This document shows, piece by piece, positions 4,464 to 29,860 of a DNA stretch of 35,034 nt. Under the pieces are notes generated by a model. That model had not been told where the DNA came from, searched no databases, and was given only the letters and a program-made list of their open reading frames with translations. Source of the DNA: Coriobacteriia bacterium (GTDB lineage: Bacteria > Actinomycetota > Coriobacteriia > Coriobacteriales > UBA8131); contig WQXH01000020.1 in NCBI GenBank assembly GCA_009784945.1, positions 1 to 35,034 of the forward strand, given 5' to 3'. Position numbers and translations under genes: made by a program. Every line of letters starts with the position of its first letter. Positions within the stretch are counted from its first letter, which is position 1.

Positions 4464-5500
4464 GTGAGGCGCAAAGAAATATCCGGGATATATTCGGGCT
4501 CTTGCTCAAGGGTAATACCAAATGTTGTTTTAACTCCCAAGACAACTTCGGCTTTAAAGAGCTCAAGGTCTTTGGGCGATCTAGCGCACAGATTGGTGAC
4601 GACCAAAGCATTGTCAGGGTAGATTTGCATACCATGTGCACGGTAGGACTTGAGGCCGGCCATCTCGATAAGCCAGCCAGCTGAAAACTTTATTAGACCA
4701 TCCGACATTTCCCAGTGCGGGGCACTCGGATGCAGTGCGAGCAGCTCGCGTGCTTCCAGATTGCCAACTACAGGGTTTTTGAAAAACGAGCCTGCGCTGG
4801 CGATTAACTGTGGATCAGGCAGCTTGCTACCCCGTATTGCAATCACAGCATTGCGTAAATTAACCGGAGAGAAGTCAGTGATGGAGAGAGTCTCCAAGTG
4901 CTCTGCCAAGGAGGGGTAAAATGGGGGAGCGAGCTGCTGCTTGCCTAAGCGCAGGGTGACAGAGCTGATTATGTGATGTCGAGTCTTGGGGTTTTTAAAG
5001 ATGCTGTTGCGGTACGAGAATCTACAGTCCTCAGCCCGTAAAACAGAAAACTGGTTGGTATTAGTGTCGTAGGCTTCCAGTTCAACCAGGCTGTGAGCAA
5101 TCTCTTGACCATAGGCTCCAACGTTTTGTATTGGTGTGGCTCCCATGTAACCAGGAATAGCGCTCATCGCTTCAACGCCGCTGAGACGAAGATTCACCAA
5201 TCGCTCAACTGTTTCGTCCCAAATCTCGCCAGCGCCAATGCGGTAGAGAGCAAAGTTGCAGTCTTGACTCACCAGTTCAAAGCCTTTGATCCGGTTGAGA
5301 ATGATAAGCCCATCGTAGTTGCCCTGTGCAATTACGTTAGAGCCTGCGCCCAAAACGAACCAGGGTATTCCCCTGTCTCGCGCATAGGAAACTGCGGCTA
5401 CAAGTTCATTAGTGGAAGTAATTTCTACTACATACCTGGCGGTTCCGCCAAGGCGCATAGTGGTAAGTGAGGCAAGGGGGATATTTTCCTTGTAGTGCAC
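4460..5500 (-). CDS. murB: UDP-N-acetylenolpyruvoylglucosamine reductase
   Basis: A 346-residue flavoenzyme catalysing the NADPH-dependent second step of UDP-MurNAc synthesis in the cytosol. FAD-binding motifs are TTMRLGGTARYV (13-24), VLGAGSNVI (49-57) and AIPGYMGATPIQNVGAYGQEI (114-134). R164 in YRNS and S238 in SAGSFFKNP match the conserved substrate arginine and proton-donor serine, and a Glu lies in the C-terminal LEQEPEYI. The length and the extra FYPSL loop fit the type I (E. coli-like) class. The start is GTG with only a weak AGG upstream. It stands alone, with the rbr promoter inside its 3' end. Confidence 0.95.
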   Translation of the reverse strand: MHYKENIPLASLTTMRLGGTARYVVEITSTNELVAAVSYARDRGIPWFVLGAGSNVIAQGNYDGLIILNRIKGFELVSQDCNFALYRIGAGEIWDETVERLVNLRLSGVEAMSAIPGYMGATPIQNVGAYGQEIAHSLVELEAYDTNTNQFSVLRAEDCRFSYRNSIFKNPKTRHHIISSVTLRLGKQQLAPPFYPSLAEHLETLSITDFSPVNLRNAVIAIRGSKLPDPQLIASAGSFFKNPVVGNLEARELLALHPSAPHWEMSDGLIKFSAGWLIEMAGLKSYRAHGMQIYPDNALVVTNLCARSPKDLELFKAEVVLGVKTTFGITLEQEPEYIPDISLRLT

Positions 5501-5622
5501 TAATCACAACCTGTCGTTGGTTTAATTGAGCTGTACAAATTGCCCGGCATCGACTCGAAGGTCACAAGGTTTCGAGGGCGTACTCGTTGAGAGCTGCAAC
5601 AGCAGCAAATACGATGCTCTGG

Positions 5623-5695
5623 CGCGCCTGGTAGGATTCGAACCTACGACCAACAGATTAGAAGTCTGCGACTCTATCCCCTGAGCTACAGGCGC
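5623..5695 (-). tRNA. tRNA-Arg (TCT)
   Basis: Minus-strand cloverleaf with acceptor GCGCCTG/CAGGCGC. Anticodon stem GCAGA/TCTGT encloses CTTCTAA, giving anticodon TCT (Arg). Discriminator G; CCA encoded at 5620-5622. No obvious terminator follows. The upstream 5696-5920 contains an imperfect TTGGGAG/CTCCCAA hairpin (5708-5749) of unknown role. Confidence 0.96.
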
Positions 5696-5899
5696 ACTGA
5701 GGGCTCATTGGGAGCGCAGTCTTGGCGTAACACCCTGCCTGCCTCCCAAGCGTTTACAAGTATAGCTGTTTATCTCAGGCTTTGCTGTGCCAGTTAGCAT
5801 TGAATTGAATGCCGACTCAATGCTCCTGCCAAGCACAACTGAGAGCTTGAGGATTCTCATCTAGTGGATTCTTATCATAAATCAAACCGCTATAACCGC

Positions 5900-5905
5900 T
5901 ATAAT
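5900..5905 (+). promoter_or_regulatory. -10 element of the tRNA-Leu promoter
   Basis: TATAAT ends 15 bp upstream of tRNA-Leu. The expected -35 window is AT-rich but does not match the consensus. Confidence 0.5.
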
Positions 5906-5920
5906 AGCTAGCTGTCGAGT

Positions 5921-6003
5921 GCGGGCGTGGCGGAATTGGCAGACGCGCCAGGTTTAGGTCCTGGTGAGGATTCCTCGTGAAGGTTCGAGTCCTTTCGCCC
6001 GCA
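5921..6003 (+). tRNA. tRNA-Leu (TAG)
   Basis: A class II tRNA with acceptor GCGGGCG/CGCCCGC and a long variable arm (about TGAGGATTCCTCG). Anticodon stem CCAGG/CCTGG encloses TTTAGGT, giving anticodon TAG (Leu). Discriminator A6003; CCA encoded at 6004-6006. It is followed at once by a strong terminator. Confidence 0.96.
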
Positions 6004-6005
6004 CC

Positions 6006-6043
6006 AAAAGTGTCAGATAGCTTAGCAGTTATCTGACACTTTT
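6006..6043 (+). terminator. tRNA-Leu terminator
   Basis: A perfect 14-bp inverted repeat, AAAAGTGTCAGATA with its complement, around a 10-nt loop. The descending arm ends in TTTT. It begins within the encoded CCA of tRNA-Leu. Because the stem is A-rich on one side and T-rich on the other, it could act in both directions. The remaining 6044-6250 shows no feature I can support. Confidence 0.9.
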
Positions 6044-6250
6044 GCATAAGGCGAAATTACCTCATAAGCGGACTTTCTCAAGATTTCCCAAGGGAATCAT
6101 CTGGCTCTCCTGTATTCGATTCTGCTGGGCTGCAGTAAAATCGAAGTATTGTAGTGAAAATAGTCCTCAAAGAAGGGCTAATAACAGATCATGGTGTAAA
6201 AATACACTACATAGGTTCTATATTAATGCAGTCAGTGGTAAAATGGGGTC

Positions 6251-7201
6251 ATGAGTGCATTCATCAGCCATGAGTCAGCTTTAGAGTACTGGCGTAAACT
6301 ACGTGTGATACCAGACGGTAGCATAAGGCAGCAAAAGAAAGTCCTGCTGCCAGAAAAGCCGCCTACTACCAAACAGGTGAAGCAAATCGGACTCACGCAG
6401 CCAGTTCATGTCATGTTCAGAAAAGCAAACACACGCTGGGTATCTCAGACGATGAGGCAGCATGTATTCTCAAGTGAAGTCGCTGCTGGTTGTTTCATTA
6501 AGGTTAAGAGCGATCTAGCAGTGAGCTCTCCCGAGTACTGCTTTCTTCAGATGGCAGGCACGTTGTCGTTAATAAAGCTTATTGAGCTCAGCTATGAGCT
6601 TTGTGGCGGATACTCCCTTCCTAACAAAAACGAGTTAAACCCTCCAGAGCGGGGGTTTTACCAGCGCAACCCTCTTGCAAGCTCAAAGAGCCTCTGCACT
6701 TTTGTAGAAAGGATGACTGGTCATAAGGGGCGTCAGAAGGCCAATCGAGCATTGCGCTGTCTTCAGGCTGACTCTGCTTCTCCCATGGAGACCAGGCTTA
6801 CCATGCTTTTGACCCTGCCGTATCAGCTTGGCGGTTTTGGGTTGAGCGCCCCAACTCTCAACAGTCGTGTATACCCAGAGGGCGGCGCAAAAAAGGTCTC
6901 TCATAAAAGCTCATATGTCTGTGATCTGTTTTGGTCAGAAAAAATGCTGGCGGTTGAGTATGACAGCGAGCAGCACCACAGCAGCACAACAAAGATCTTT
7001 GAGGATGCCAAGAGGAGAAATGCATTGAATCGAATGGGTATCACTGTGGTAACTGTGACCAAGCAACAACTATATAACAGCGCGGAGCTGGAGAAGGTGG
7101 CAAGGATTATAGCCAGCTACTTGAGAAAAAGGCTGGTGCTTAAGAATCCAGGATTTGCCCAGGCTCATCGTGCATTACGTGAGGAACTGTTTGAGCCCTA
7201 G
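6251..7201 (+). CDS. Uncharacterised protein with C-terminal DUF559/Vsr-like nuclease fold
   Basis: A 316-residue soluble protein with no signal peptide. The N-terminal 170 residues match no motif I recognise. The C-terminal part (about 175-300) looks like a small PD-(D/E)XK or Vsr-like endonuclease domain: SPMETRLTMLL, then VCDLFWSEKMLAVEYDSEQHH (D, E and D spaced as in DUF559), then EDAKRRNALNRMGITVVTVT. A weak GGGG precedes the ATG. The YjbR gene follows after 13 bp on the same strand. No methylase or antitoxin lies next to it, so a restriction role is not supported. Nuclease activity is a prediction from motif spacing only. Confidence 0.6.
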   Translation: MSAFISHESALEYWRKLRVIPDGSIRQQKKVLLPEKPPTTKQVKQIGLTQPVHVMFRKANTRWVSQTMRQHVFSSEVAAGCFIKVKSDLAVSSPEYCFLQMAGTLSLIKLIELSYELCGGYSLPNKNELNPPERGFYQRNPLASSKSLCTFVERMTGHKGRQKANRALRCLQADSASPMETRLTMLLTLPYQLGGFGLSAPTLNSRVYPEGGAKKVSHKSSYVCDLFWSEKMLAVEYDSEQHHSSTTKIFEDAKRRNALNRMGITVVTVTKQQLYNSAELEKVARIIASYLRKRLVLKNPGFAQAHRALREELFEP

Positions 7202-7214
7202 CGAAAGGAGAGTA

Positions 7215-7598
7215 ATGGATAACACAAGATTGGACGCTGTTTTGCTTGCTAAGAAAGGCGTTGAGAAGGACTTCAAGGCAGAGTGGGAATGGTGGCGGTA
7301 CCTGATTGATGGCAAGATGTTTGCTGCTTTGCTTCGCCCTTCGGCCCAATATGACCCAAAGTATGCCGAGCGGGATCTTCTCACTTTGAAGTGTGACCCA
7401 TTGTATTCTGAGCAGCTACGGGCTGAGTATTCCGACATACTTCCAGGCTTCTATACCGATAAGCGCAACTGGATTTCTATCAGGTTCGATGGCGCTGTGC
7501 CTGACGAGCTTATTGTGGAGCTTTGCGAACACTCGTACCAGCTGGTGCTGGCAAAACTCACCAAGAAACGACAGTGTGAGATAAATGAGCTTGAATGA
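7215..7598 (+). CDS. MmcQ/YjbR family protein
   Basis: A 127-residue protein of the YjbR fold. Diagnostic segments are EWWRYLIDGKMFAALL (near residues 24-39), LTLKCDP, and PGFYTDKRNWISIRFDGAVP, followed by an LCEHSYQLVLAKLTKK helix. Members are small DNA-binding-like proteins of unclear function. I chose ATG 7215 because AAAGGAG stands 5 nt before it; a longer in-frame start at 7155 would lie inside the previous gene and lacks a ribosome site. It is probably co-transcribed with the upstream gene. Between it and the convergent MFS gene (7599-7759) is only a weak hairpin (7702-7716). Confidence 0.85.
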   Translation: MDNTRLDAVLLAKKGVEKDFKAEWEWWRYLIDGKMFAALLRPSAQYDPKYAERDLLTLKCDPLYSEQLRAEYSDILPGFYTDKRNWISIRFDGAVPDELIVELCEHSYQLVLAKLTKKRQCEINELE

Positions 7599-7759
7599 CT
7601 TAACTCAGCAGGTCGGCAGCGGGATTAACTTCCGCGTTGCAAGGTACGCTCAGTTGCGGGACAAAGGGGTCGGAGCTGGCGTCACTACAAGCGTAGAATG
7701 GGACAGCAGCCCTGTCAGGTTCTGATTCAAACCACTACCTCCCTCAAAAAAGAAGCTGT

Positions 7760-8983
7760 TTACTCATATTGTTTTGACTTAATAGCAGGGGCAGTTTCGT
7801 AGTAGGCAAAGGCAATGAAGGCTGCAATGACGATACAACAGGCAGCAAATATCAAGGGTGCCTGGAGCCCAAAGGTATCGGCGAGTCGACCGGCTATGGC
7901 TACGCCAATTACACAACCACCAATTTCACCAACCATTTGCACACTTGAGATGGCGGTAGAAGTGTACTTAGTGTCTATTGACTCGCCAATAACTGCTGCT
8001 TGATACAAGGCGTAGACCCCTGATCCACTCCAACCTACAAACACACAAAGAGCAATGGCAAGAGGCGAAGTAAAGTACAGCAGGCCAAGAGGCGACACCA
8101 CACTTAACAGGGTAAACATGATAATCATTGGCTTGCGGCCAAAGGTATCCGACAGGCTGGGAACCACAACGCCCCAAACAACTGCGCCCACGCCAAATGC
8201 TGCCATTATTAAACTCCAAGTAGCGGGCTCAAAGCCTTTGACAACCTCGAGGAAAGAAGGAGCAAAGGTCAGTATTCCTACATTCCAGGTCATGATAAAG
8301 CTGCTAAAGACCAGAGAAGTTATCACATTTCTGTTCTTAAATATGACAAGGCTGTCTTTTAAAGAGGTCTTTACATCTTGCGCAACTAAACCAACTCCTT
8401 GGCTCATGTCAGGCTCTTTAAGCACCCTGAGCACGAGGAAGGCAACAATCACGCCAGGAATAAAGGTGAGAAAGAAGGTAATTCTCCAATTAAATGCCAT
8501 GCATAAGGCAACAAGAAGAACTGGGGCAATCAGGTTGGCAATGATGCCCATGGAGGTCGTTGATATGAGCCCCATGTTGAGGCCTCTGCGTTTGGGAGTC
8601 GATTGAGCCATGGCAAAAGCTTGAACAAGGGGAAAAGTTGGACCATACAATAGCCCCATAAGAAATCTGATGGCAATGAACATAACAAGACCATTGGATA
8701 GGCCTGTTAAAAAGGCGCATACGGAGGACAAAAGCGTGAGGGCACCAAGCATGCGCTTCTTGTTGGCAGTGAGATCAGAAAACATACTCCCAAAAAAGCC
8801 AGAGAGTGCCCACGCAAGCGCAAACACAGCCATGGTGAGACCCAAGTCGGTATAGCTCAGCTGTAGATCCGACTCAATAAATGGCCAAAGATTTGCAATG
8901 GCAAATCGGTCAAACATGGCAAAGCCAAAGCAGAGCATACAAATAGCGACCATTTTATTTTCGTATGATAGAATCTTTTTCAT
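7760..8983 (-). CDS. Major facilitator superfamily transporter
   Basis: A 407-residue inner-membrane protein with about 12 hydrophobic segments in two six-helix halves. The loop after helix 2 carries a degenerate MFS motif (GSMFSDLTANKKRML), and the second half has SLSDTFGRKPMII, the equivalent loop. The opening FGFAMFDRFAIANLWPFI resembles anion/carboxylate symporters (ACS-like), so an organic acid substrate is possible but not provable. The start is ATG with AAAGG 8 nt upstream. It is monocistronic on minus. Two ATTGCAAT-type elements upstream (9011-9018 and 9040-9046) may be regulatory. Confidence 0.85.
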   Translation of the reverse strand: MKKILSYENKMVAICMLCFGFAMFDRFAIANLWPFIESDLQLSYTDLGLTMAVFALAWALSGFFGSMFSDLTANKKRMLGALTLLSSVCAFLTGLSNGLVMFIAIRFLMGLLYGPTFPLVQAFAMAQSTPKRRGLNMGLISTTSMGIIANLIAPVLLVALCMAFNWRITFFLTFIPGVIVAFLVLRVLKEPDMSQGVGLVAQDVKTSLKDSLVIFKNRNVITSLVFSSFIMTWNVGILTFAPSFLEVVKGFEPATWSLIMAAFGVGAVVWGVVVPSLSDTFGRKPMIIMFTLLSVVSPLGLLYFTSPLAIALCVFVGWSGSGVYALYQAAVIGESIDTKYTSTAISSVQMVGEIGGCVIGVAIAGRLADTFGLQAPLIFAACCIVIAAFIAFAYYETAPAIKSKQYE

Positions 8984-19408: not shown

Positions 19409-19480
19409 GGGCGTTTGGCGCAGCGGGAGCGCGCTTCCTTCACACGGAAGAGGTCGCTGGTTCAAATCCAGTAACGCCCA
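19409..19480 (+). tRNA. tRNA-Val (CAC), hybrid after element integration
   Basis: Acceptor GGGCGTT/AACGCCC. Anticodon stem CTTCC/GGAAG encloses TTCACAC, giving CAC (Val). Discriminator A19480; CCA at 19481-19483. The 3' half from about 19439 is inside the repeat that bounds the mobile element, and the integrase lies 108 bp further on, so this half was probably supplied by the element. Its T-stem GCTGG/CCAGT has a G-T wobble at the first pair, whereas the distal copy at 26704 has a perfectly paired stem. Confidence 0.95.
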
Positions 19481-19483
19481 CCA
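19439..19483. repeat. attL (in tRNA-Val)
   Basis: 45 bp shared with 26687-26731 at 42 positions. The first 17 bases, from the anticodon loop to the variable loop, and the last 16 (T-stem to CCA) are identical; the three differences lie between. Crossover is likely in the first 17-bp block, typical of tyrosine integrases using the anticodon loop. Confidence 0.8.
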
Positions 19484-19552
19484 GAGTTTTCGCAGGTAAA
19501 TCGCATAAAGAGTCATCTACCTTCCCACCTTCAACCACAAACGAGAATAAAA

Positions 19553-19574
19553 TTTCTACAAAACTTCTACAAAT
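19553..19574. repeat. Integrase arm-type site pair, attL side
   Basis: Two tandem 11-bp units, TTTCTACAAAA and CTTCTACAAAT, directly downstream of the integrase stop codon. The same pair occurs at the far end (26549-26570) in the same orientation. An 11-bp period places both on one face of the helix, as expected for arm binding by the integrase N-terminal domain. Confidence 0.6.
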
Positions 19575-19590
19575 AGTATGCAGAAGCGCA

Positions 19591-20802
19591 TTAAAAGTTG
19601 ACAATCTTGCCCATTTTAAGGGGCTTCATTTCCAATACTTTGCCCATGATTGCTGCTGCTTTCACATCATCTTCCCTCTGTGCATGGGCGTACAGGTCGA
19701 GGGTGATTCCTGTGGAGGCGTGGCCTAGACGGGCAGATACCGCCTTAATGTTCAACCCACTGCTCACCAAGAGAGTGGCATGGGTATGCCTTAGTTCGTG
19801 GACTTTCAACCCCTCAAAGCCATGCTCAGTGGTAAAGTCTCTCCACCAACGTCCGTAGTTGTCGGGGTCTGAATACTCGGCATTGCTGTCAGTCACCACG
19901 GGCGTACTGCCGCCTACCTCTGTGCCGTGCTGTTGGTAGTACTCAGTCTGCGTACTTTTCCAACGCCTGAGTTGTTCGATGGTGCCAGCATCAATGGACA
20001 CGGTGCGGAGCCCAGCTTTTGATTTGGGTGCCTTGGTTGTGCGGTCTTTCTGTAGCGTGTGCCTGATTTCAATGTGGCCATGAACAAGGTCTATGTTCCC
20101 CCACGTCAGTGCCAGCATCTCGCCACGTCTCATACCGGTTGCCAGCACAATTCTTGCACCGGAGATTCTTGCTAGTTGGAGGATACTATCAACCTCGCGG
20201 CTGCGGCTCAAGGCTCTTTCATTGGCGTTAAAAGCCTGTAGCAGCCTGCCAACCTCCTCTTTGCTCAGTGCCTTGCGCTTAGTCTCAAGGGGAAGCTGCG
20301 GACGCTCTACGCGCTCACAGGGGTTGTACATGAGAATGTCATCATTCACCGCCAGCTTGAGGATACTGTGGAGTACAAGACTGGCAGTCTTTATCATATG
20401 AACTCCCAGTTTGTCCTCTACCTTCATATCTGCGTAGGCCGTCCTGATATTATGAGGGGCTATCTCTTTGAGTGGCGTGTCCTCAAAGTAACGGTTCAAG
20501 TGTCGTATTGCGTAATCCTCCTTTGCCATAGTAGAAGCTGCATACCTTTCAGATGATATACGTGTCTCGTGCCATTGAGCAGCGTACTCCCCAAAGGTCA
20601 CCTTGTCTGCATCTAAGCGCAACCCTCCTTCCAGTTCTCGCCGAAATTCCTCGCGGGCTCTCACCGCGTCAGCCTTGGTGCCCTTAACAGTTCTGGTTGC
20701 CTGTCGGTACTTCTTTGCTTTCTTATCGTAGCCGAGGGAGAAGCGTATTTCCCATGAGTACTTGGAAATCTTCCGTATTGTTCCTGCTCCTTTTATCTTC
20801 AT
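19591..20802 (-). CDS. int: Tyrosine recombinase (integrase)
   Basis: A 403-residue phage-type integrase. It has an N-terminal arm-binding domain (1-60, GTIRKISKYSWEIRFSLGYD), a SAM-like core-binding domain (about 68-160) and a C-terminal catalytic domain. The catalytic set is complete: R225 in ATGMRRGE, K in KSKAGLRTV (about 262), H335 and R338 in HELRHTH, H361 in GHAS, and nucleophile Y371 in LDLYAHA. An insertion of about 20 residues (196-217) precedes box I. AAAGGAGG stands 8 nt before the ATG. It reads toward the tRNA-Val gene it inserted into. Confidence 0.95.
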   Translation of the reverse strand: MKIKGAGTIRKISKYSWEIRFSLGYDKKAKKYRQATRTVKGTKADAVRAREEFRRELEGGLRLDADKVTFGEYAAQWHETRISSERYAASTMAKEDYAIRHLNRYFEDTPLKEIAPHNIRTAYADMKVEDKLGVHMIKTASLVLHSILKLAVNDDILMYNPCERVERPQLPLETKRKALSKEEVGRLLQAFNANERALSRSREVDSILQLARISGARIVLATGMRRGEMLALTWGNIDLVHGHIEIRHTLQKDRTTKAPKSKAGLRTVSIDAGTIEQLRRWKSTQTEYYQQHGTEVGGSTPVVTDSNAEYSDPDNYGRWWRDFTTEHGFEGLKVHELRHTHATLLVSSGLNIKAVSARLGHASTGITLDLYAHAQREDDVKAAAIMGKVLEMKPLKMGKIVNF

Positions 20803-20912
20803 AGCGCTGTCCTCCTTTCATGTCTTTTGTGTTGATGGTAATGACTTGCCTACTACATAGTTGCTCTGCGTCTACAGTATCTCCTTTCACTTGTTTACCT
20901 GAGAATACAAGG

Positions 20913-21809
20913 TTAATCTTCAATAGCTCGGCCAGACCCAGTGCTCTCGATTGCTTCTTGCATATCAGCGATACCGGGGAATTGGTAGGGGCGGGCATTG
21001 TTGTTGCCCTGCCATCGAAGTTCTCGGGCTCTTAACTCACGAGCAGGCTTGAACTGCATCTCTGGCTCAGAGGTTTTCGCAAGCCGCTTCAGCTCATTGC
21101 TGTACTTTTCTATGTGAGATTGGACACAGGCTATGCGAGGTTGGCCACCTGCTGATCCTGTGCGGATACGGTTTACCACTTTGCCGCATACAGGACACAG
21201 GCCGGGAGATTGCGTCTTGGTGACGGATGCCAGCGAGTGCCACGCACCCTCAAAGCCCTGCGGTTTTCTGAACTTGGGCTTGCCCTCAAACGTACCGATA
21301 TAACTTGGCCTTGAAAAATAGTTTGCAATCAAGTGCCCCAAAAGTAGCACGAGTTTGCGAGAGTCACTGTCGATGAACTCTTCTCTACTTTGGGCGAAGA
21401 GCGTGAATACCTGATTGCTGCTGTCAAGGTGTTCTCGCGTGCCCTCTATTAGGTGGCACTCTTCCTCATATTCACTCGGAATATCCAAGGGTGAAACATC
21501 AGCACCTCTGGCATTGTTCATGTCTAGAGGCAATAGTACCTTGATTTCAATATGGAAAAACTCACCACTCCAAGACTTGCTCAAGAAAAGCTCTGCGAAG
21601 TAGTTAATATCAGAACGGCTGGCCAGCCCGTTTCCGTAGGCGATAAGGCTGGCTACTCTATACAGGCATTCGCATTGAATGGCGGCTTCGTCCAAATGCA
21701 ACTTCTGTAACCCCGTAAGCTCGGGCACATCTACTATAGCCTTAATGTATTCCTCAGGGGTGAGCGCATTGGCTGGTTGGGCAAAATCAGATTTCTGCTC
21801 TGTTGTCAT
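20913..21809 (-). CDS. Element-encoded protein with a CxxC zinc-finger-like motif
   Basis: A 298-residue soluble protein. The ATG at 21809 has AAAGGAG 5 nt upstream; an earlier TTG or GTG start is less likely. The N-terminal 190 residues are mostly helical with no motif I know. Residues about 205-240 carry LCPVCGKVVN...RIACVQSHIEKY, a CxxC-C-H zinc-ribbon-like site often found near the end of element-borne Abi-type or DNA-binding proteins. It lies 110 bp upstream of the integrase on the same strand and is divergent from the XRE gene. It could be a regulator or an accessory protein; function unknown. Confidence 0.6.
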   Translation of the reverse strand: MTTEQKSDFAQPANALTPEEYIKAIVDVPELTGLQKLHLDEAAIQCECLYRVASLIAYGNGLASRSDINYFAELFLSKSWSGEFFHIEIKVLLPLDMNNARGADVSPLDIPSEYEEECHLIEGTREHLDSSNQVFTLFAQSREEFIDSDSRKLVLLLGHLIANYFSRPSYIGTFEGKPKFRKPQGFEGAWHSLASVTKTQSPGLCPVCGKVVNRIRTGSAGGQPRIACVQSHIEKYSNELKRLAKTSEPEMQFKPARELRARELRWQGNNNARPYQFPGIADMQEAIESTGSGRAIED

Positions 21810-21891
21810 GGTCTCTCCTTTACAAAGTACCACGCATTAAAATTTCTGAACGCTAGATGAATCTCGCAAAAGCTAAAGAACCGATATGGTA

Positions 21892-21910
21892 AATTGTAAC
21901 TATAATTGTA
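21892..21910 (+). promoter_or_regulatory. Divergent control region, tandem AATTGTA
   Basis: AATTGTA occurs twice with a 12-bp period (21892-21898 and 21904-21910) and surrounds a TATAAT (21901-21906). It lies in the divergent spacer between the zinc-finger gene and the XRE repressor, where an autorepressor would bind. No clear -35 is present. Confidence 0.35.
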
Positions 21911-21955
21911 GTGATGGCTGAGCAGGTCGTCAAGGAAAAGATAGGAGGAAGAAGA

Positions 21956-22171
21956 ATGCTGAGGCTGCGAATTGAGAGACAGAGGTTAGGGGTCTCTCAG
22001 GCGAGGTTGGCTGCTGCCACTCAAACAATGCACCCCTCAAGTATCGCTCAGATTGAGGCGGGCAGGAAGCCGGGGTTCAAGCAGAGACATCTGTTGGAAC
22101 AGGCAATGAGAGAAAAGGGATGGCAAGGAAAGGGCGACTTGTTTGAGGAGGTGTTAGATGAAAGCCCTTGA
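21956..22171 (+). CDS. XRE-family repressor
   Basis: A 71-residue Cro/CI-type DNA-binding protein consisting essentially of one helix-turn-helix: LRIERQRLGVSQARLAAATQ, then HPSSIAQIEAGRKPG. I placed the start at ATG 21956 because AGGAGGAA lies 7 nt before it; a longer GTG form (21911) lacks a ribosome site. It overlaps the Xis gene by 14 nt. By position it is the likely switch controlling excision and replication genes. Confidence 0.8.
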   Translation: MLRLRIERQRLGVSQARLAAATQTMHPSSIAQIEAGRKPGFKQRHLLEQAMREKGWQGKGDLFEEVLDESP

Positions 22172-22358
22172 AGGTTATCCTCCGTTCCTGACAGTCAAAC
22201 AAGCAGCGGGGGTCATGCAGGAATCGGAGAACACGATAAGGCGCTGGTGCAATGAGGACATTCTGCCTGCTGTGAAGTTTGCAGACGGTGGACACTGGCG
22301 CATAGTAAAGATAAAACTTGAGGCCATGATTGAAAAAGGAGAGTATCAAGATGTTTGA
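22158..22358 (+). CDS. Excisionase-like MerR-type HTH protein
   Basis: A 66-residue small DNA-binding protein of the Xis/MerR winged-helix class. FLTVKQAAGVMQESENTIRRW is the HTH, and HWRIVKIKLEAMIEK the wing and tail. A strong GAGGAGG precedes the ATG. It overlaps both the XRE gene and the primase start, so all three are translationally coupled. By position and fold it could bend DNA for excision or regulate the primase. Confidence 0.8.
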   Translation: MKALEGYPPFLTVKQAAGVMQESENTIRRWCNEDILPAVKFADGGHWRIVKIKLEAMIEKGEYQDV

Positions 22359-24558
22359 TGTTACTGAGATAAATGAAGAGACCGCCTCGGACAAGGCAGC
22401 CTCCTCAGAACTGTTCGACTGCGCGAACACTGAACAGTTTAACAAAACCACTGGCAATGCACCAGACCTGAAAGCTGCCGCGCTGGAATATGCGAGGCAA
22501 GGATACCCTGTATTTCCCTGTGTCACCAAAGGCAAAAAGCCGTTAACAGCAAATGGATATAAGAACGCAACCACTGACCCTGAAACAATAGAGAGATGGT
22601 GGTCGTGGAATCCAACGGCCAACATTGGACTTGTAACCAACAACATGTTAGTTGTTGATATTGATGGAGAATTGGGCGCAGAATCCTTGGCAGCCTGGGA
22701 AGCTATACAGGGCACCCTTCCTGAGACCGCCACAGCCCGTACGGGCGGCGGTGGAAGCCATCGCTTCTACAGGGTAAAGGAGCCAGTTAAGTGCCGTACA
22801 GCCGCCCTAGAAGGCGTGGACATCAGAGCGGACGGTGGGTATACCATTGTAGCTCCATCAATCCATCAAAGTGGTGCGGCCTATGCATGGAAGATACCGC
22901 TTGAGCAAATCGCCTATGCGTCCGAGGCTGTCATCAAGCTAGCCACTCATAGGAGTACGAAGAAGCCTGTTGATTCCTTGCCCGAGGGAAACCGGAACTC
23001 TGGCCTTACAAGCTTGGGCGGTAGACTGCGGGTTCGCGGAGCCAGCGATGTGCTCATACATGAGGCTCTTCACGAGGCCAACAGAGTGCACTGCACGCCA
23101 CCTCTGGGGCAAGAGGAAACGCAAGGTATTGCTGATAGCATAACTGGTTATCCTAAGGGTGAGCTTGCAGTCGACCACACAGGTGCTGGTTTATCTGAGC
23201 GGTATGCTGCTCGGTATTGTGGCCTTGCCTGTTACTGCCCTGCTATTGGCTGGCTCGTCTATAACGGTATTGTGTGGCAACGCTCAGACCTTGAAGCCTT
23301 GCAACTTATGGATAGCCTCACTCGAGATATGCTGGTAGATGCTAACACCCAGCTTGCACTTGCACACGATGGACTGGCGCAAGCCGAAATAGATGGTAAC
23401 AAAGAAGCAAAAAAGGAAGCAGGGGATAAGCTAAAGAGGGCAAGGGAATATCGCTCCTATGCCCTCAAGTGCAGAAGCACATCAACCATGAGTGGTGCAC
23501 TAAACCATGCGAGATGCCATCTTGCAATAGATCTTGGCCAACTTGATAACGACCCCTATTTACTTAACACACCGACAGGAACAGTGGATTTGAGGACGGG
23601 GATTACCAAGCCTCACAATCCAAAGGACTTCTGTACCAAAGTAACGGCGGTAGAGCCAGCAGACAGTGAGGAAGATATGCTCCTGCAAGACTTTCTGTCG
23701 TTGATATTTTCCGGAGACAGAGAGCTGATGCACTATGTCAAAGTTGCTTTGGGCTCAGGACTTATAGGTAAGGTCTTTGAAGAAGCCATGCTCTTGGCAT
23801 ACGGTGACGGTTGCAATGGCAAGAGCACCCTGTTCAATACTGTGGCGAATGTAATAGGTTCTTACAGTGGCAAGTTCCCCGCAGAGGCTCTGACTACCAA
23901 GGGTAAAAGTGCCAGACACGACCTAGCAGAATTATTGGCGGTCAGGCTTGCCTTTGCCGCCGAGACTGAGGAAGGAATGCGACTATCCAATTCGGTTCTC
24001 AAGCAGATTGCTTCCACGGATAACATATCGGCAGAACGTAAGTTCCATGACCCATTCGATTTTGACCCTTCACACTTGATGGTCCTGTCTACCAATCATC
24101 TGCCCAAGGTATCAAGCATCGACTATGGAACATGGCGCAGAATCAAGGCAGTACCCTTTGGCGCAAAGATACAAACTCCCGATACCTCATTTGCCGGAAA
24201 GCTACTAAAGGAATCAGGCGGGGCAATGCTGAGATGGCTTGCTGAGGGTGCCAAGGAGTTCATTGAGAATGGGTACAAGTTTCCATCCTGTGCGGCTGTA
24301 GACCGTGCCATAGAGATTTACAAAGCTTCCAATGATTGGCTGGGTGCCTTTCTGGAGGAATGCTGTGTGCTTGGTGAGGGGCAAGCTGGCGGCAGAGAAC
24401 TGTACTCTGCTTACCACTTCTGGGCTTCTCAGGCCAATGACTACATAAGGAGCAAGGCAGACTTCAAGGCAGCTTTGGAGAACGCAGGCTTGGAGTGGAG
24501 GAAAACCAACAAAGGCGTGCGCTGGTATGGGATTTCCTTAGTAACTCCAACTGTGTAG
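22351..24558 (+). CDS. Prim-pol / SF3 helicase replication protein
   Basis: A 735-residue replication protein of the phage/plasmid P4-D5 type. The N-terminal archaeo-eukaryotic primase-polymerase domain (about 40-210) starts GYPVFPC...KKPL and has catalytic D103 and D105 in VVDID with H137 in HRFY. A PriCT-like segment follows (about 215-270), then a D5-N domain. The superfamily 3 helicase has Walker A GDGCNGKST (about 486-494), then LAFAAETEEG and the sensor VLSTNHLPKV (about 578-587). The ATG at 22351 has AAGGAG 9 nt upstream and overlaps the Xis stop. It gives the element autonomous replication initiation. Confidence 0.93.
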   Translation: MFDVTEINEETASDKAASSELFDCANTEQFNKTTGNAPDLKAAALEYARQGYPVFPCVTKGKKPLTANGYKNATTDPETIERWWSWNPTANIGLVTNNMLVVDIDGELGAESLAAWEAIQGTLPETATARTGGGGSHRFYRVKEPVKCRTAALEGVDIRADGGYTIVAPSIHQSGAAYAWKIPLEQIAYASEAVIKLATHRSTKKPVDSLPEGNRNSGLTSLGGRLRVRGASDVLIHEALHEANRVHCTPPLGQEETQGIADSITGYPKGELAVDHTGAGLSERYAARYCGLACYCPAIGWLVYNGIVWQRSDLEALQLMDSLTRDMLVDANTQLALAHDGLAQAEIDGNKEAKKEAGDKLKRAREYRSYALKCRSTSTMSGALNHARCHLAIDLGQLDNDPYLLNTPTGTVDLRTGITKPHNPKDFCTKVTAVEPADSEEDMLLQDFLSLIFSGDRELMHYVKVALGSGLIGKVFEEAMLLAYGDGCNGKSTLFNTVANVIGSYSGKFPAEALTTKGKSARHDLAELLAVRLAFAAETEEGMRLSNSVLKQIASTDNISAERKFHDPFDFDPSHLMVLSTNHLPKVSSIDYGTWRRIKAVPFGAKIQTPDTSFAGKLLKESGGAMLRWLAEGAKEFIENGYKFPSCAAVDRAIEIYKASNDWLGAFLEECCVLGEGQAGGRELYSAYHFWASQANDYIRSKADFKAALENAGLEWRKTNKGVRWYGISLVTPTV

Positions 24559-24560
24559 TA

Positions 24561-24654
24561 GTGACAATAGGTGACGGTGGATTTCTTATATATACATAAA
24601 CTACCTTTCTTGGTTTGTATAGCAGTATGAATATCTATCGTCACCCTTCGTCAC
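24561..24654. other. Candidate replication origin (iteron-flanked AT-rich DNA)
   Basis: Directly after the primase-helicase stop, GTGAC occurs at 24561-24565 and GTGACG at 24571-24576; CGTCAC occurs at 24639-24644 and 24649-24654. The two pairs face each other around about 60 bp of AT-rich DNA (ATTTCTTATATATACATAAA within it). Short iterons around a melting region beside a replication gene is the layout of P4-type origins. This is an inference from layout only. Confidence 0.5.
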
Positions 24655-24753
24655 TTTGGCACACCACAGCGTATCCGGGCGAGCCCGCGCCTCTAGTGGC
24701 ATGGAGGATTTGAGGGCTGTTTGAATCTTAGAACACAACTGCGAGTTGGCGAA

Positions 24754-25342
24754 CAGTGGGCAAGCCATCCTCGCTGGGGCTCGGAGTTCCCCACTGCACA
24801 TCATCTTCCAGCCCCAAAAGAGATACACACTAAAGAGAGAGCTTGGCACACTCTTGCCACAGTAGGAGGGGGTAGGTATATATTGAGTAATGTAGCTATT
24901 TGGAGATTAGGAACTTCCCCATACAAACTTTTTCTTCATTTCCAGAAGTGTTCCCAAGAAGAGCCAGCACATATGGGCAGCTTAGTACCTGTCTTGAAAT
25001 ACCTTGTCATATTGCTATCATGGAGGACAGGGCGGAGTCGCAATTCTTACTGGCCTGACAAAGCATACCAGTCAAATCATCTGCTGCTCTACACGGTTTA
25101 TGACTCCCTGTCTGCCCATAGCTCCCTGTATGGTTCTCATGAGCTATACTTTGATATGCCAAATACCTATGTGGTTCATTATGAATCTCGTAAACATGCT
25201 TGTAGAAGGACATCTGTCCATCCTGTAGCATGTTTATATGCCACATGGGTGTTTGGCGACATAGGGCGGATGTCCTTCTTCATGCTGCTAACGGCGTTCA
25301 GAATCATCCTCCTTGCATACCTGATGAACGGGAAGGATGATT
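24754..25342 (+). ncRNA. Highly structured non-coding leader or ncRNA candidate
   Basis: The 785 bp between the helicase gene and the zinc-ribbon operon hold dense inverted repeats. Examples: CAGTGGG/CCCACTG (24754-24796); TGGGGCT/AGCCCCA (24775-24816); GACAGG/CCTGTC plus GAGTC/GACTC (25026-25112) with ACTGG/CCAGT inside; a 17-bp pair with two mismatches (25158-25174 and 25241-25257) enclosing perfect TAAACATGCT/AGCATGTTTA and GGACA/TGTCC; and AATCATCCT/AGGATGATT (25302-25342). One frame is open throughout, but its product (rich in W and H) is unlike a real protein. The boundaries are approximate; it matches no RNA family I recognise. Confidence 0.5.
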
Positions 25343-25344
25343 AC

Positions 25345-25944
25345 ATGGGCAGCTTCTGCGGTAGATGCCGGGCGCCAGTTGAAGATGGGGAGCTACATTG
25401 TCCCGAATGTGGAGCAGAGATTAACTGGGACAACAGTCACCCTGTGCCGCCGCCTCCACAACGACAGTATCAGCAGCAGCAATACGCTCCCTTTCCTAGC
25501 GAGCCTGTAGGATTTGAGCAAGCTCCGCTACTCAATACTTGGAAAACCTCAGTAGGCTTCTCAGTACTTGGCGTATTGGTGGGATTCCCTTTCATGGTGG
25601 TATTGATGATACTGATTGCGATACTGCCCGCCTTTGGTATCTATTTCCTTACAGGTATAGACCCTCAAGCTATTATCCCACTACTTGCTCCGAGTATCTT
25701 CTATGTGTTGGAGATAGTATACGCAGCAGTATTCTACCCTTCGTATTTCACTGAGAAGCCCAAGCTCAAGTCAAGCCGCATAATCTCGTTGCTAAATCTT
25801 GTGTTTGGGTTTGTCATTTTTGGTGTGCTGTGGAACAGCAACCTCACCAAGAAAAACAAGGGAATCTCATACATTGTCCTTATAGTTGGAACTGCGCTCA
25901 TGCTAGCCCAAATGCTTTTTGGCATATTGCTTTCGATGGTTTAG
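25345..25944 (+). CDS. Zinc-ribbon multi-pass membrane protein
   Basis: A 199-residue protein with an N-terminal zinc ribbon (C5, C8, C19, C22 in SFCGRC and HCPECG), then a P/Q-rich linker, then about four hydrophobic segments (about 70-105, 110-131, 145-163, 174-199). The ATG at 25345 has AAGGA 7 nt upstream, and that site is caught in the stem 25302-25342. The in-frame extension to 24721 crosses structured DNA and is not credible. It is followed after 8 bp by a second zinc-ribbon membrane protein. It resembles zinc_ribbon_2 membrane proteins of unknown role. Confidence 0.75.
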   Translation: MGSFCGRCRAPVEDGELHCPECGAEINWDNSHPVPPPPQRQYQQQQYAPFPSEPVGFEQAPLLNTWKTSVGFSVLGVLVGFPFMVVLMILIAILPAFGIYFLTGIDPQAIIPLLAPSIFYVLEIVYAAVFYPSYFTEKPKLKSSRIISLLNLVFGFVIFGVLWNSNLTKKNKGISYIVLIVGTALMLAQMLFGILLSMV

Positions 25945-25952
25945 GAGCTGTG

Positions 25953-26507
25953 ATGGAGAAGACAGAAAAGCTTGAACAGCAATCATTGCCTGTGCAAGAC
26001 CGTTGTAAGAACTGCCGGACGCCAGTCTATCCTGAGCAGAAGAACTGCCCTGAATGTTTAGCAAAGCTCCCTTGGAGAAAGGCGGCAAGAGGGCACCCGC
26101 CACAACTTGACTATAGTGACCGTAACAAGTATGGACAGGACACATCATGGATTCTTCCGGTAGCAATAGTTCTTGTCATAGCTCTCTCTATCTCATTGGG
26201 TAACTGGATGGGGTGCACACATCAAGAGACACCGGAGGCTGGTAGCAATAGCTCGTCTTCATCCTATGGGGGAGTTGGAGTTCTTCCACAAAACCCACCT
26301 CAAAAGCCAGAACTGCCAGAACCCGGTCAGCAGCCAATTATTGTCTGCACGAACTGTCAGAAAGTATTCCCTGTTGATGACTTTAAGACAATGACACAAC
26401 TAGAGGACGATGGCGAGACACACGCATATTATATATGCCCCAGCTGTGATTATCTTCTGAGTGTTCCAGAGGACTATTATTTGAGCCACCTTGAGGAATT
26501 CGATTGA
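25953..26507 (+). CDS. Zinc-ribbon single-pass membrane protein
   Basis: A 184-residue protein with an N-terminal zinc ribbon (C18, C21, C32, C35), one transmembrane helix at about 66-83 and a Ser/Pro-rich linker. A second C-terminal zinc site (C132, C135, C162, C165) lies within VCTNCQKVFP and YYICPSCDYLL. AGGAG stands 5 nt before the ATG. It is co-transcribed with the preceding multi-pass zinc-ribbon gene and is the last gene of the element. The two may form one complex. No known function; cargo (defence, surface or helper interference) is a guess. Confidence 0.75.
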   Translation: MEKTEKLEQQSLPVQDRCKNCRTPVYPEQKNCPECLAKLPWRKAARGHPPQLDYSDRNKYGQDTSWILPVAIVLVIALSISLGNWMGCTHQETPEAGSNSSSSSYGGVGVLPQNPPQKPELPEPGQQPIIVCTNCQKVFPVDDFKTMTQLEDDGETHAYYICPSCDYLLSVPEDYYLSHLEEFD

Positions 26508-26548
26508 TGTATAAGAAGCGACCCTGCGCTGCTGGGTTTTTAGGAAAA

Positions 26549-26570
26549 CTTCTACAAAAGCTCTACAAAT
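26549..26570. repeat. Integrase arm-type site pair, attR side
   Basis: CTTCTACAAAA and GCTCTACAAAT in tandem, matching 19553-19574. They lie 117 bp from the attR core. Nearby, CACTGACCAGTG (26621-26632) is a near-palindrome, and ATGGTTG/CAACCAT (26646-26677) is an inverted pair. No gene lies in 26508-26855. Confidence 0.6.
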
Positions 26571-26657
26571 ACCTTGGAATACCGTTGTTTAAGATGATGT
26601 ACGTTGATGTAAGAATTATCCACTGACCAGTGAAGATAGGTTATAATGGTTGAAGAT

Positions 26658-26731
26658 GGGCGGCCTGACGCAACCATTCGCCTCGATTCACACGGAAGAG
26701 GTCACTGGTTCAATCCCAGTAACGCCCACCA
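26658..26731 (+). pseudogene. Decayed tRNA-Val copy / attR
   Basis: The 3' part (26687-26731) is a near copy of the tRNA-Val 3' half, including anticodon loop, T-arm, acceptor strand and CCA. The T-stem ACTGG/CCAGT is perfectly paired. Upstream, GGGCG at 26658 and CGCA in the D-arm region align with the 5' half with one indel, and a TATAAT (26642-26647) lies 10 bp before it, like a tRNA promoter. The anticodon 5' strand (CTCGA) cannot pair with GGAAG, so it should not be functional. It is attR, and may be a dead second tRNA-Val. Confidence 0.65.
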
Positions 26732-29607: not shown

Positions 29608-29860
29608 AGACCCCTCGGGTCTGTGGTTGCGGAGCACGCTCACTCCCTCTGTGTGCTCCTAGTCCATGGTAGTCGCGGCCAAAAGGACCCACGTAAGCAA
29701 CACCACGGTGTTGTGAGCATGGCGCGACTTAGGTGTAAGACGTACCGTCTTAGACAAGAGGATAAGCCTCTGAGGCGAGAGAGCCAGTAGTAAGATAGTA
29801 TCAAGCAAACGTTCCAGTATGCGAGTGTGGGGACAAAGACCAGGTCAGCCGAGGGGCTTT
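29608..29860 (+). ncRNA. Structured RNA, candidate raiA motif
   Basis: About 250 nt with no ORF, starting 15 bp after comF. The ends are closed by CCCCTCGG (29611-29618) with CCGAGGGG (29849-29856). Internal stems include GGTTGC/GCGGCC (29625-29630 with 29675-29680), GGAGCAC/GTGCTCC (29631-29659), AGTCGCG/CGCGACT (29671-29677 with 29723-29729, an alternative pairing), CAACAC/GTGTTG (29698-29713), TAAGACG/CGTCTTA (29736-29752) and AGAGG/CCTCT (29757-29771). Size, comF context and the nearby hpf gene suggest the raiA-motif RNA, which usually precedes hpf/raiA. The fold is seen; the family name needs a covariance search. Confidence 0.62.

What the first reader, a model, noticed from the sequence alone, without database searches (positions are those of the whole stretch)
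19439..26731. Compact satellite-like integrative element in tRNA-Val with no virion or conjugation genes
Seen: tyrosine integrase, XRE/Xis overlap, prim-pol plus SF3 helicase, iteron-like DNA, structured non-coding stretch and two zinc-ribbon membrane proteins, between tRNA-Val repeats. Known: P4 and PICI satellites use exactly a prim-pol/D5 replicon plus integrase and hijack a helper. Inference: this is a small actinobacterial satellite or integrative plasmid whose helper is unknown.
Basis: partly seen in the sequence, partly recalled or inferred. Interest (0 to 1): 0.75.

Follow-up and report, generated by a model that had tools for sequence, protein, structure and literature searches.

The report
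Small phage-satellite-like island in Coriobacteriia
A 7.2-kb mobile DNA island sits in a valine tRNA gene of a gut actinobacterium; it carries its own cut-and-paste and copying genes but nothing for building virus particles or conjugation, and it belongs to a recurring group of small islands that look like parasites of bacterial viruses.

Summary
Window 19439-26731 is a complete integrative element of 7,248 bp. It is bounded by a 45-nt repeat of the 3' half of tRNA-Val(CAC), and two same-genus genomes have the empty site. Gene order is int<-, Zn-finger gene<-, ->XRE ->Xis ->PrimPol-SF3 helicase, predicted ori, two zinc-ribbon proteins. No capsid, terminase, relaxase or FtsK gene was found. Three features were added here: a predicted origin directly behind the helicase gene (two GTGAC iterons, AT-rich core, two inverted iterons); tandem 11-bp arm-type sites at both ends; and a 103-nt conserved non-coding block. 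The kind recurs: eight further att-bounded elements of 5.8-9.7 kb lie in various tRNAs across Coriobacteriia, with similar int/Xis ends but variable replicases and cargo. A same-family sibling in the same tRNA-Val site carries a terminase small subunit (TerS), the packaging gene of many PICI satellites. Best explanation: a PICI-like phage satellite that excises, replicates from its own ori and is packaged by an unknown helper (0.6). This element lacks TerS, and no helper prophage marker was found in its genome, so packaging is inferred; an integrative plasmid moved another way remains possible. Novelty: new variant of a known kind.

The parts
19409..19483 (+). tRNA-Val(CAC) target gene; its 3' half is re-supplied by the element
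   Evidence: ARAGORN; empty-site alignment
19439..19483 (+). attL, 45 nt
19553..19574 (+). left arm-type integrase sites, two tandem 11-bp copies (TTTCTACAAAA CTTCTACAAAT)
19591..20802 (-). int, tyrosine recombinase, 403 aa (P0001)
   Evidence: PF00589 1.2e-19; phrog_1 1.4e-56; relatives
20913..21809 (-). 298-aa orphan (P0002) with C-terminal CxxC...C zinc-finger-like motif, the int-linked partner gene; position of the PICI repressor
   Evidence: no family hit; 43% identical in L023; three Cys invariant in 13 int-linked proteins; AlphaFold pLDDT 68 with no fold match
21914..22171 (+). XRE-family HTH regulator (P0003)
   Evidence: PF13560/PF01381
22158..22358 (+). Xis/AlpA-like excisionase (P0004)
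   Evidence: PF12728 6.3e-11; TIGR01764 above cut-off; phrog_66
22351..24558 (+). PrimPol - PriCT_1 - D5_N - SF3 helicase fusion, 735 aa (P0005)
   Evidence: PF09250 8.6e-40, PF08706 2.4e-28; TIGR01613 3.2e-61
24561..24654 (+). predicted origin: GTGAC x2 (10-nt spacing), 64-nt core 70% A+T, inverted GTCAC x2 (10-nt spacing)
   Evidence: same layout, other iteron sequences, behind SF3 genes of L016, L017, L019, L020, L021, L022
24720..24822 (+). conserved non-coding block, 78% identical to L016 14010-14120; function unknown (packaging site or RNA?)
25191..25285 (+). nested inverted repeats / strong hairpin in the non-coding stretch
25345..25944 (+). 199-aa protein, N-terminal zinc ribbon plus hydrophobic segments (P0006), cargo
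   Evidence: PF13240 20.7 bits, below cut-off of 25; hydrophobic segments by eye
25953..26507 (+). 184-aa protein, zinc ribbon - hydrophobic segment - Ser/Pro linker - second CxxC domain (P0007), cargo
   Evidence: PF17032 27.8 bits, below cut-off of 28.9; hydrophobic segment by eye
26549..26569 (+). right arm-type integrase sites, two tandem 11-bp copies (CTTCTACAAAA GCTCTACAAA)
26687..26731 (+). attR, 45 nt (closest to the native tRNA-Val 3' half of empty sites)

Best explanation
An intact PICI-like phage satellite, that is, a small chromosomal island that parasitises a phage. Int, guided by arm sites at both ends and assisted by Xis, inserts the circle into and excises it from the 3' half of tRNA-Val(CAC). 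XRE and the int-linked zinc-finger protein P0002 keep it quiet or set direction. After induction, the PrimPol-SF3 protein binds the paired inverted iterons directly behind its own gene, melts the AT-rich core and primes replication. A helper phage's terminase and capsid then package the copies; lacking its own TerS, this element would use a helper-recognised cos/pac site, possibly the conserved non-coding block. P0006 and P0007 are cargo. Shown by sequence: boundaries, empty site, gene set, predicted ori, arm sites, recurrence, TerS in a same-site sibling. Inferred: helper dependence, packaging, and the roles of P0002 and the cargo.
For: 45-nt att repeat and empty sites. No structural, terminase, relaxase or FtsK family among the seven genes; leftover small ORFs listed. 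PICI gene order int<- regulator<- ->xis ->pri-rep, ori, accessory, as described in PMC6092414. Ori of two iteron sets flanking an AT-rich region immediately 3' of the helicase gene. Eight further complete 5.8-9.7-kb att-bounded elements in Coriobacteriia with no capsid genes recognised: L016 (tRNA-Val CAC), L017 (Lys), L019 (Glu), L020 and L105 (Gly), L086 and L170 (Pro), L177 (Ala). Tandem arm sites at both ends of window, L016, L019, L086, L170 and L177. Sibling L022 (G026, same family): an att copy of the same tRNA-Val(CAC) at 1878-1922, then TerS (phrog_309, 1.1e-34), the same type of ori, SF3, Xis, XRE and CGNR genes and the start of an integrase-like gene, with an ABC-F gene outside the att site. 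That TerS also matches Streptococcus satellite phage Javan259. The SF3 part matches a solved 'DNA primase', 7ola/7om0, which I recall, without having checked, as the SaPI5 primase-helicase.
Against: The window element has no TerS and no recognisable phage-interference or capsid-size gene. No terminase large subunit (phrog_2, PF03354) or portal (PF04860) was found in the host genome or in sibling genomes, though the host genome is a MAG about 88% complete and not all TerL families were tried. The int/CGNR/Xis module is not satellite-specific: it also sits on prophages with TerL (L159, L162, L175, L234-L240) and on a mobilisable element in the same genome (L097). The paired-iteron origin is also found behind the helicase genes of L121-L123, of which L122 and L123 carry TerL, so it does not prove a PICI. 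TerS in L022 is a single case, and its left end is missing at the contig edge. At 7.2 kb it is smaller than the 12-15 kb typical of PICIs.
Confidence: 0.6

Rival explanations
1. A small integrative plasmid that excises and replicates by itself and is moved by a conjugative element in trans, or by transformation, with no phage helper.
For: A 6,886-bp circle with int(-), MerR, HTH and PrimPol-SF3 genes in the same order exists as a deposited plasmid of Thermaerobacter sp. FW80 (the record is terminally redundant). The host genome carries elements with relaxase- and MobC-like genes, judged by eye (L096, L097), one of which has the same kind of Xis, CGNR gene and integrase. No helper prophage marker was found in the host genome.
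Against: No relaxase, MobC or FtsK gene in the element. No nucleotide similarity to L096 or L097 that would suggest a shared oriT. The same-site sibling carries a phage packaging gene, TerS, not a mobilisation gene.
Confidence: 0.27
2. A degenerate prophage: an internal deletion removed the structural genes of a prophage such as L162 or L234 and left the ends and the replication module.
For: TerL-bearing prophages of 27-38 kb in the same class carry int, often a CGNR gene, Xis and PrimPol-SF3 in the same relative order.
Against: Nine att-bounded elements of 5.8-9.7 kb in different tRNAs, six of them with arm sites found at both ends. All window genes are open with tight overlaps and no phage gene remnants were recognised. 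Independent deletions giving the same size class many times is unlikely.
Confidence: 0.08
3. A reduced AICE (actinobacterial integrative and conjugative element) that lost its FtsK-type translocase.
For: AICEs use tyrosine integrases, Xis and sometimes PrimPol with partner Rep genes, one of them with a D5-like gene (PMC3218068).
Against: No FtsK/SpoIIIE Tra gene, the defining transfer gene. That survey found AICEs confined to Actinomycetales. None of the nine complete elements listed has a recognised FtsK gene; the one small element that seems to (L171) has a rolling-circle-type Rep, by eye, and a different layout.
Confidence: 0.04

Closest known systems
PICI (phage-inducible chromosomal islands; Gram-positive type, e.g. 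SaPIs)
   Same: int and a second gene leftward; xis, pri-rep, ori and accessory genes rightward; att in the chromosome; no structural genes; ori of two iteron sets around an AT-rich core directly behind rep; TerS in a same-site sibling
   Different: 7.2 kb instead of 12-15 kb; leftward gene is a zinc-finger-like orphan, not a recognised HTH repressor; PrimPol-type primase fused to SF3; no TerS or interference gene recognised in this member; host class Coriobacteriia; helper unknown
PICMI (phage-inducible chromosomal minimalist islands, Vibrionaceae)
   Same: about 6-7 kb; int, an AlpA/Xis-like regulator and a replicative primase; an int-linked gene (iolg) that overlaps int, as the gene next to int does in some relatives (e.g. 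L086, L089); large non-coding regions; no capsid-remodelling genes (PMC10803314)
   Different: PICMI integrates downstream of fis and is known from Vibrionaceae; homology of the int-linked genes was not tested; packaging as concatemers is shown for PICMI, not here
P4-type satellites
   Same: P4-family primase/helicase C-terminal domain (TIGR01613), AlpA/Xis-like regulator, tRNA integration
   Different: no Psu, Sid, Delta or cos recognised; no co-resident P2-like helper found
Thermaerobacter sp. FW80 plasmid unnamed2 (NZ_CP037897)
   Same: int(-), MerR, HTH, PrimPol-SF3 in the same order; true circle 6,886 bp; primase 32% identical over 94% of P0005
   Different: Firmicute host; deposited as plasmid; no convincing paired-iteron ori found behind the gene
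AICEs (pSAM2/SLP1 type)
   Same: tyrosine integrase, Xis, PrimPol in some
   Different: no FtsK-type Tra gene

Membership tests
PICI | Conserved order: int<- repressor<- | ->xis ->pri-rep ->ori ->accessory (terS optional) | tested here: met
   Gene map; definition read in PMC6092414. The identity of the leftward gene as repressor is not shown.
PICI | Replication origin immediately 3' of rep: two iteron sets flanking an AT-rich region | tested here: met
   24561-24654; predicted from sequence only
PICI | No phage structural or lytic genes | tested here: met
   PHROGs, Pfam and NCBIfam scans; small ORFs listed
PICI | Att sites not used by prophages | tested here: inconclusive
   tRNA-Val(CAC) holds small elements in window, L016 and L022 and a truncated one in L023; occupation by prophages was not surveyed systematically
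PICI | Size typically 12-15 kb | tested here: not met
   7,248 bp; smaller satellites exist (PICMI 6.1 kb, PMC10803314)
PICI | Master repressor (Stl/Rpr) or AlpA-type regulator of the island | tested here: inconclusive
   XRE and AlpA/Xis-like proteins present; P0002 has no known family or fold
PICI | Phage-interference or capsid-size genes, TerS in some | tested here: not met
   none recognised in this member; TerS only in sibling L022
PICI | Induction, packaging and transfer by a helper phage | not testable with these tools
   needs cultures or particle sequencing
P4-type satellite | Psu/Sid/Delta genes and a P2-like helper | tested here: not met
   no such family in PHROGs or Pfam scans
AICE | FtsK/SpoIIIE-type Tra protein | tested here: not met
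   definition PMC3218068
IME (integrative mobilisable element) | Relaxase or Mob gene | tested here: not met
   no oriT-like similarity to L096/L097
PICMI | int, alpA and primase at the fis locus of Vibrionaceae | tested here: not met
   inserted in tRNA-Val of a coriobacterium

The most novel reading that the evidence does not exclude
Coriobacteriia host a so far undescribed family of minimal phage satellites (5.8-9.7 kb) that share integrase/Xis ends and an int-linked zinc-finger control gene, swap replicases (PrimPol-SF3, DnaB-like, DnaD/DnaC) and cargo, and are mobilised mostly by infecting rather than resident phages, some with their own TerS and some with a borrowed packaging site such as the conserved 103-nt block.
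Probability: 0.45. Interest if true: 0.7.

Novelty: new variant of a known kind. Interest (0 to 1): 0.55.

Why it matters
Phage satellites are well described in Firmicutes and Proteobacteria. For Coriobacteriia, common gut and termite-gut bacteria, I found no paper on them in the held library, and an actinobacterial prophage survey only supposes that small elements may be satellites (PMC10023795). If true, the finding gives a genome-defined satellite family, with att sites, predicted origins and a TerS-bearing member, in hosts where phage biology is little studied, and offers clear tests: look for the attP junction in virions. It also shows that the paired-iteron origin said to be unique to PICIs occurs behind the helicase genes of TerL-bearing coriobacterial prophages as well.

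Tried and rejected
Single-protein scans of viral and genome contigs with P0005 found nothing. Prophages with an SF3 helicase but no PrimPol (L014, L015, Corynebacterium phiCATYP, Streptococcus phages) were set aside as distant users of the same helicase. P0002: no family, no solved relative beyond a weak zinc-ribbon match (L24e, 0.011), no fold match. Rfam search of the structured stretch gave only plant-microRNA-type chance hits. The conserved block has no match in the phages collection or by exact pattern in IMG/VR; a weak third match (L156, 0.012) did not hold on alignment; its predicted folds are not convincingly stable. A four-copy pattern at 25550-25626 resembling the ori layout lies in a coding region and is taken as chance. 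A first, stricter scan for the ori layout missed the window's origin because its sixth base varies; the 5-base scan found it. TerS search across the order found only distant hits outside G026. Homologues of P0007 and P0002 were not found among phages.
Full report
WHAT IS THERE. The window holds a complete integrative element from attL (19439-19483, the 3' half of tRNA-Val(CAC)) to attR (26687-26731), 7,248 bp apart. The two copies agree in 42 of 45 bases. The attR copy is closest to the native tRNA 3' half; the attL copy, which now completes the tRNA gene, presumably came with the element.

GENES. Leftward: a tyrosine integrase (P0001) and a 298-aa orphan with a C-terminal CxxC...C motif (P0002). 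Rightward: an XRE regulator, a Xis/AlpA-like protein overlapping it by 14 bp, and a 735-aa PrimPol - D5_N - P4-type SF3 helicase fusion (TIGR01613 well above cut-off). Then follow 786 bp without a gene and two small proteins with zinc-ribbon motifs and hydrophobic segments. None of the small ORFs left over looks like a gene. No capsid, portal, terminase, relaxase or FtsK family was convincingly hit in Pfam, PHROGs or NCBIfam, and no defence system in PADLOC.

ENDS. Both ends carry two tandem 11-bp copies of the same word (TTCTACAAA-type, 19553-19574 and 26549-26569); in the whole window the 8-mer TCTACAAA occurs on the + strand only at these four places. Five other complete elements show the same layout with other words (L016 AGGACACAATC, L019 ACTACCACAGA, L086 TGGGTATAATT, L170 ATCCGCAAATC, L177 GGGGATATGTT), and sibling L022 shows it at its right end. 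These are best read as integrase arm-type sites and mark the elements as units with two functional ends.

ORIGIN. Directly behind the helicase stop codon, 24561-24654 has GTGAC twice at 10-nt spacing, a 64-nt core of 70% A+T, and the inverted word twice at 10-nt spacing. Random sequence of the same dinucleotide make-up gives such a pattern 0.005 times per 35 kb. The pattern was noticed first and tested after, so the stronger argument is recurrence: behind the SF3 genes of L016, L017, L019, L020, L021 and L022 the same layout appears with different iteron words. PMC6092414 describes this organisation, immediately 3' of the replication initiation gene, as shared by PICIs and no other known replicon. 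Here it also occurs, with longer and less A+T-rich cores, behind the helicase genes of L121-L123, of which L122 and L123 carry a TerL, so it is not proof of a PICI.

RECURRENCE. Searches of whole genomes and of named genome contigs place the host in Coriobacteriia; G019:C61, same genus as the host, coincides in length and match position with WRBR01000061.1 of the MAG Lab288P1bin85. Besides the window, eight complete att-bounded elements were found: L016 8.86 kb (tRNA-Val CAC, another family), L017 7.37 (Lys), L019 8.41 (Glu), L020 6.88 and L105 5.78 (Gly), L086 6.96 and L170 6.25 (Pro), L177 9.65 (Ala). L016 and L019 repeat the order int - (regulator/CGNR) - XRE - Xis - PrimPol-SF3. L086 has a DnaB-like helicase and an HsdR-N-like cargo gene; L170 and L177 have DnaD-like, and L177 also DnaC-like, loaders. 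No capsid, terminase, relaxase or FtsK family was recognised in the genes scanned from these elements; not every small ORF of every element was scanned. Zinc-ribbon cargo recurs in L019 and L177. The gene next to int varies strongly but keeps three cysteines in 13 aligned proteins.

THE SIBLING WITH TerS. L022 (G026, same family) contains, from one contig end to the other: an ABC-F gene taken to be chromosomal, a 45-nt copy of the tRNA-Val(CAC) 3' half (1878-1922), an arm-type tandem repeat, a TerS gene (phrog_309, 1.1e-34), the paired-iteron ori, an SF3 helicase gene, Xis, XRE, a CGNR gene and the start of an integrase-like gene at the contig end. The att copy closes this side, so there is no room for structural genes there. 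TerS without a large subunit in an att-bounded island is the packaging signature of many PICIs. This TerS also matches Streptococcus satellite phage Javan259, although that element carries an annotated large subunit too. The L022 contig is only 7 kb and its left end is missing.

HELPER. Terminase large subunit (phrog_2; PF03354) and portal (PF04860) profiles found nothing in the host genome or in seven or eight related genomes, while they rang in control genomes. The host genome is about 88% complete and not every TerL family was tried. A resident helper is therefore unsupported; an infecting or virulent helper, as shown for PICMI (PMC10803314) and reported for S. thermophilus islands (PMC13376191), would fit.

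ALTERNATIVES. The same kinds of integrase, CGNR gene and Xis occur on TerL-bearing prophages and on what looks like a mobilisable element in the host's own genome (L097), so the module alone does not decide between satellite, plasmid and prophage. A plasmid of Thermaerobacter (true circle 6,886 bp) has the same order of int, HTH and PrimPol-SF3 genes, showing that such elements can exist as circles. I give 0.6 to a satellite, 0.27 to an integrative plasmid, 0.08 to a degenerate prophage and 0.04 to a reduced AICE.

UNEXPLAINED. A 103-nt non-coding block (24720-24822) is 78% identical to one in L016 (another family, same tRNA-Val(CAC) site, opposite orientation), while the integrases and primases of the two elements are only 34-37% identical. 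Two 1-nt indels argue against coding. It is the strongest nucleotide-level link between the two elements and a candidate packaging site or RNA. It may also be a repeat found elsewhere in these genomes, which I could not test.

Noticed in passing
window 29610-29857 (+): raiA RNA (RF03072, 162.8 bits), outside the element, between a ComF-like gene and ABC-transporter genes.
   Followed up: no
window 24720-24822; L016 14010-14120: 103-nt non-coding block 78% identical between two tRNA-Val(CAC) elements of different families; no Rfam or phage match.
   Followed up: partly
L096 (G000:C2:82000-101900): Own-genome integrative element with what looks by eye like a relaxase (5144-6205 -), a MobC-like protein (6190-6672 -) and an integrase.
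   Followed up: no
L097 (G000:C5:6000-25900): Own-genome element in tRNA-Val(TAC) with MobC-like, cytosine methyltransferase and Vsr-like genes (by eye), Xis, an int-linked Zn-finger protein and an integrase.
   Followed up: no
L016 3463-6335: A second, oppositely oriented integrase with a CGNR partner next to tRNA-Met lies beside the tRNA-Val(CAC) element, so two elements appear to sit back to back in G063.
   Followed up: no
L121-L123, L110, L113, L115, L116 and others: Paired-iteron origin layout also lies behind SF3 helicase genes outside the small elements, including TerL-bearing prophages; PMC6092414 calls it unique to PICIs.
   Followed up: partly
left ends of the window element, L019, L170, L177: A CGCAGGTCA-like word follows the tRNA 3' end within about 20 nt in several elements, in L177 as part of an inverted repeat.
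   Followed up: no
L171 (SUUE01000003.1): 9.65-kb element in tRNA-Met with what look by eye like a rolling-circle Rep and an FtsK-like gene, a different kind of small integrative element in the same class.
   Followed up: no
L025 (NZ_CP037897.1): Thermaerobacter plasmid record is terminally redundant: bases 1-1570 equal 6887-8456, so the real circle is 6,886 bp.
   Followed up: yes
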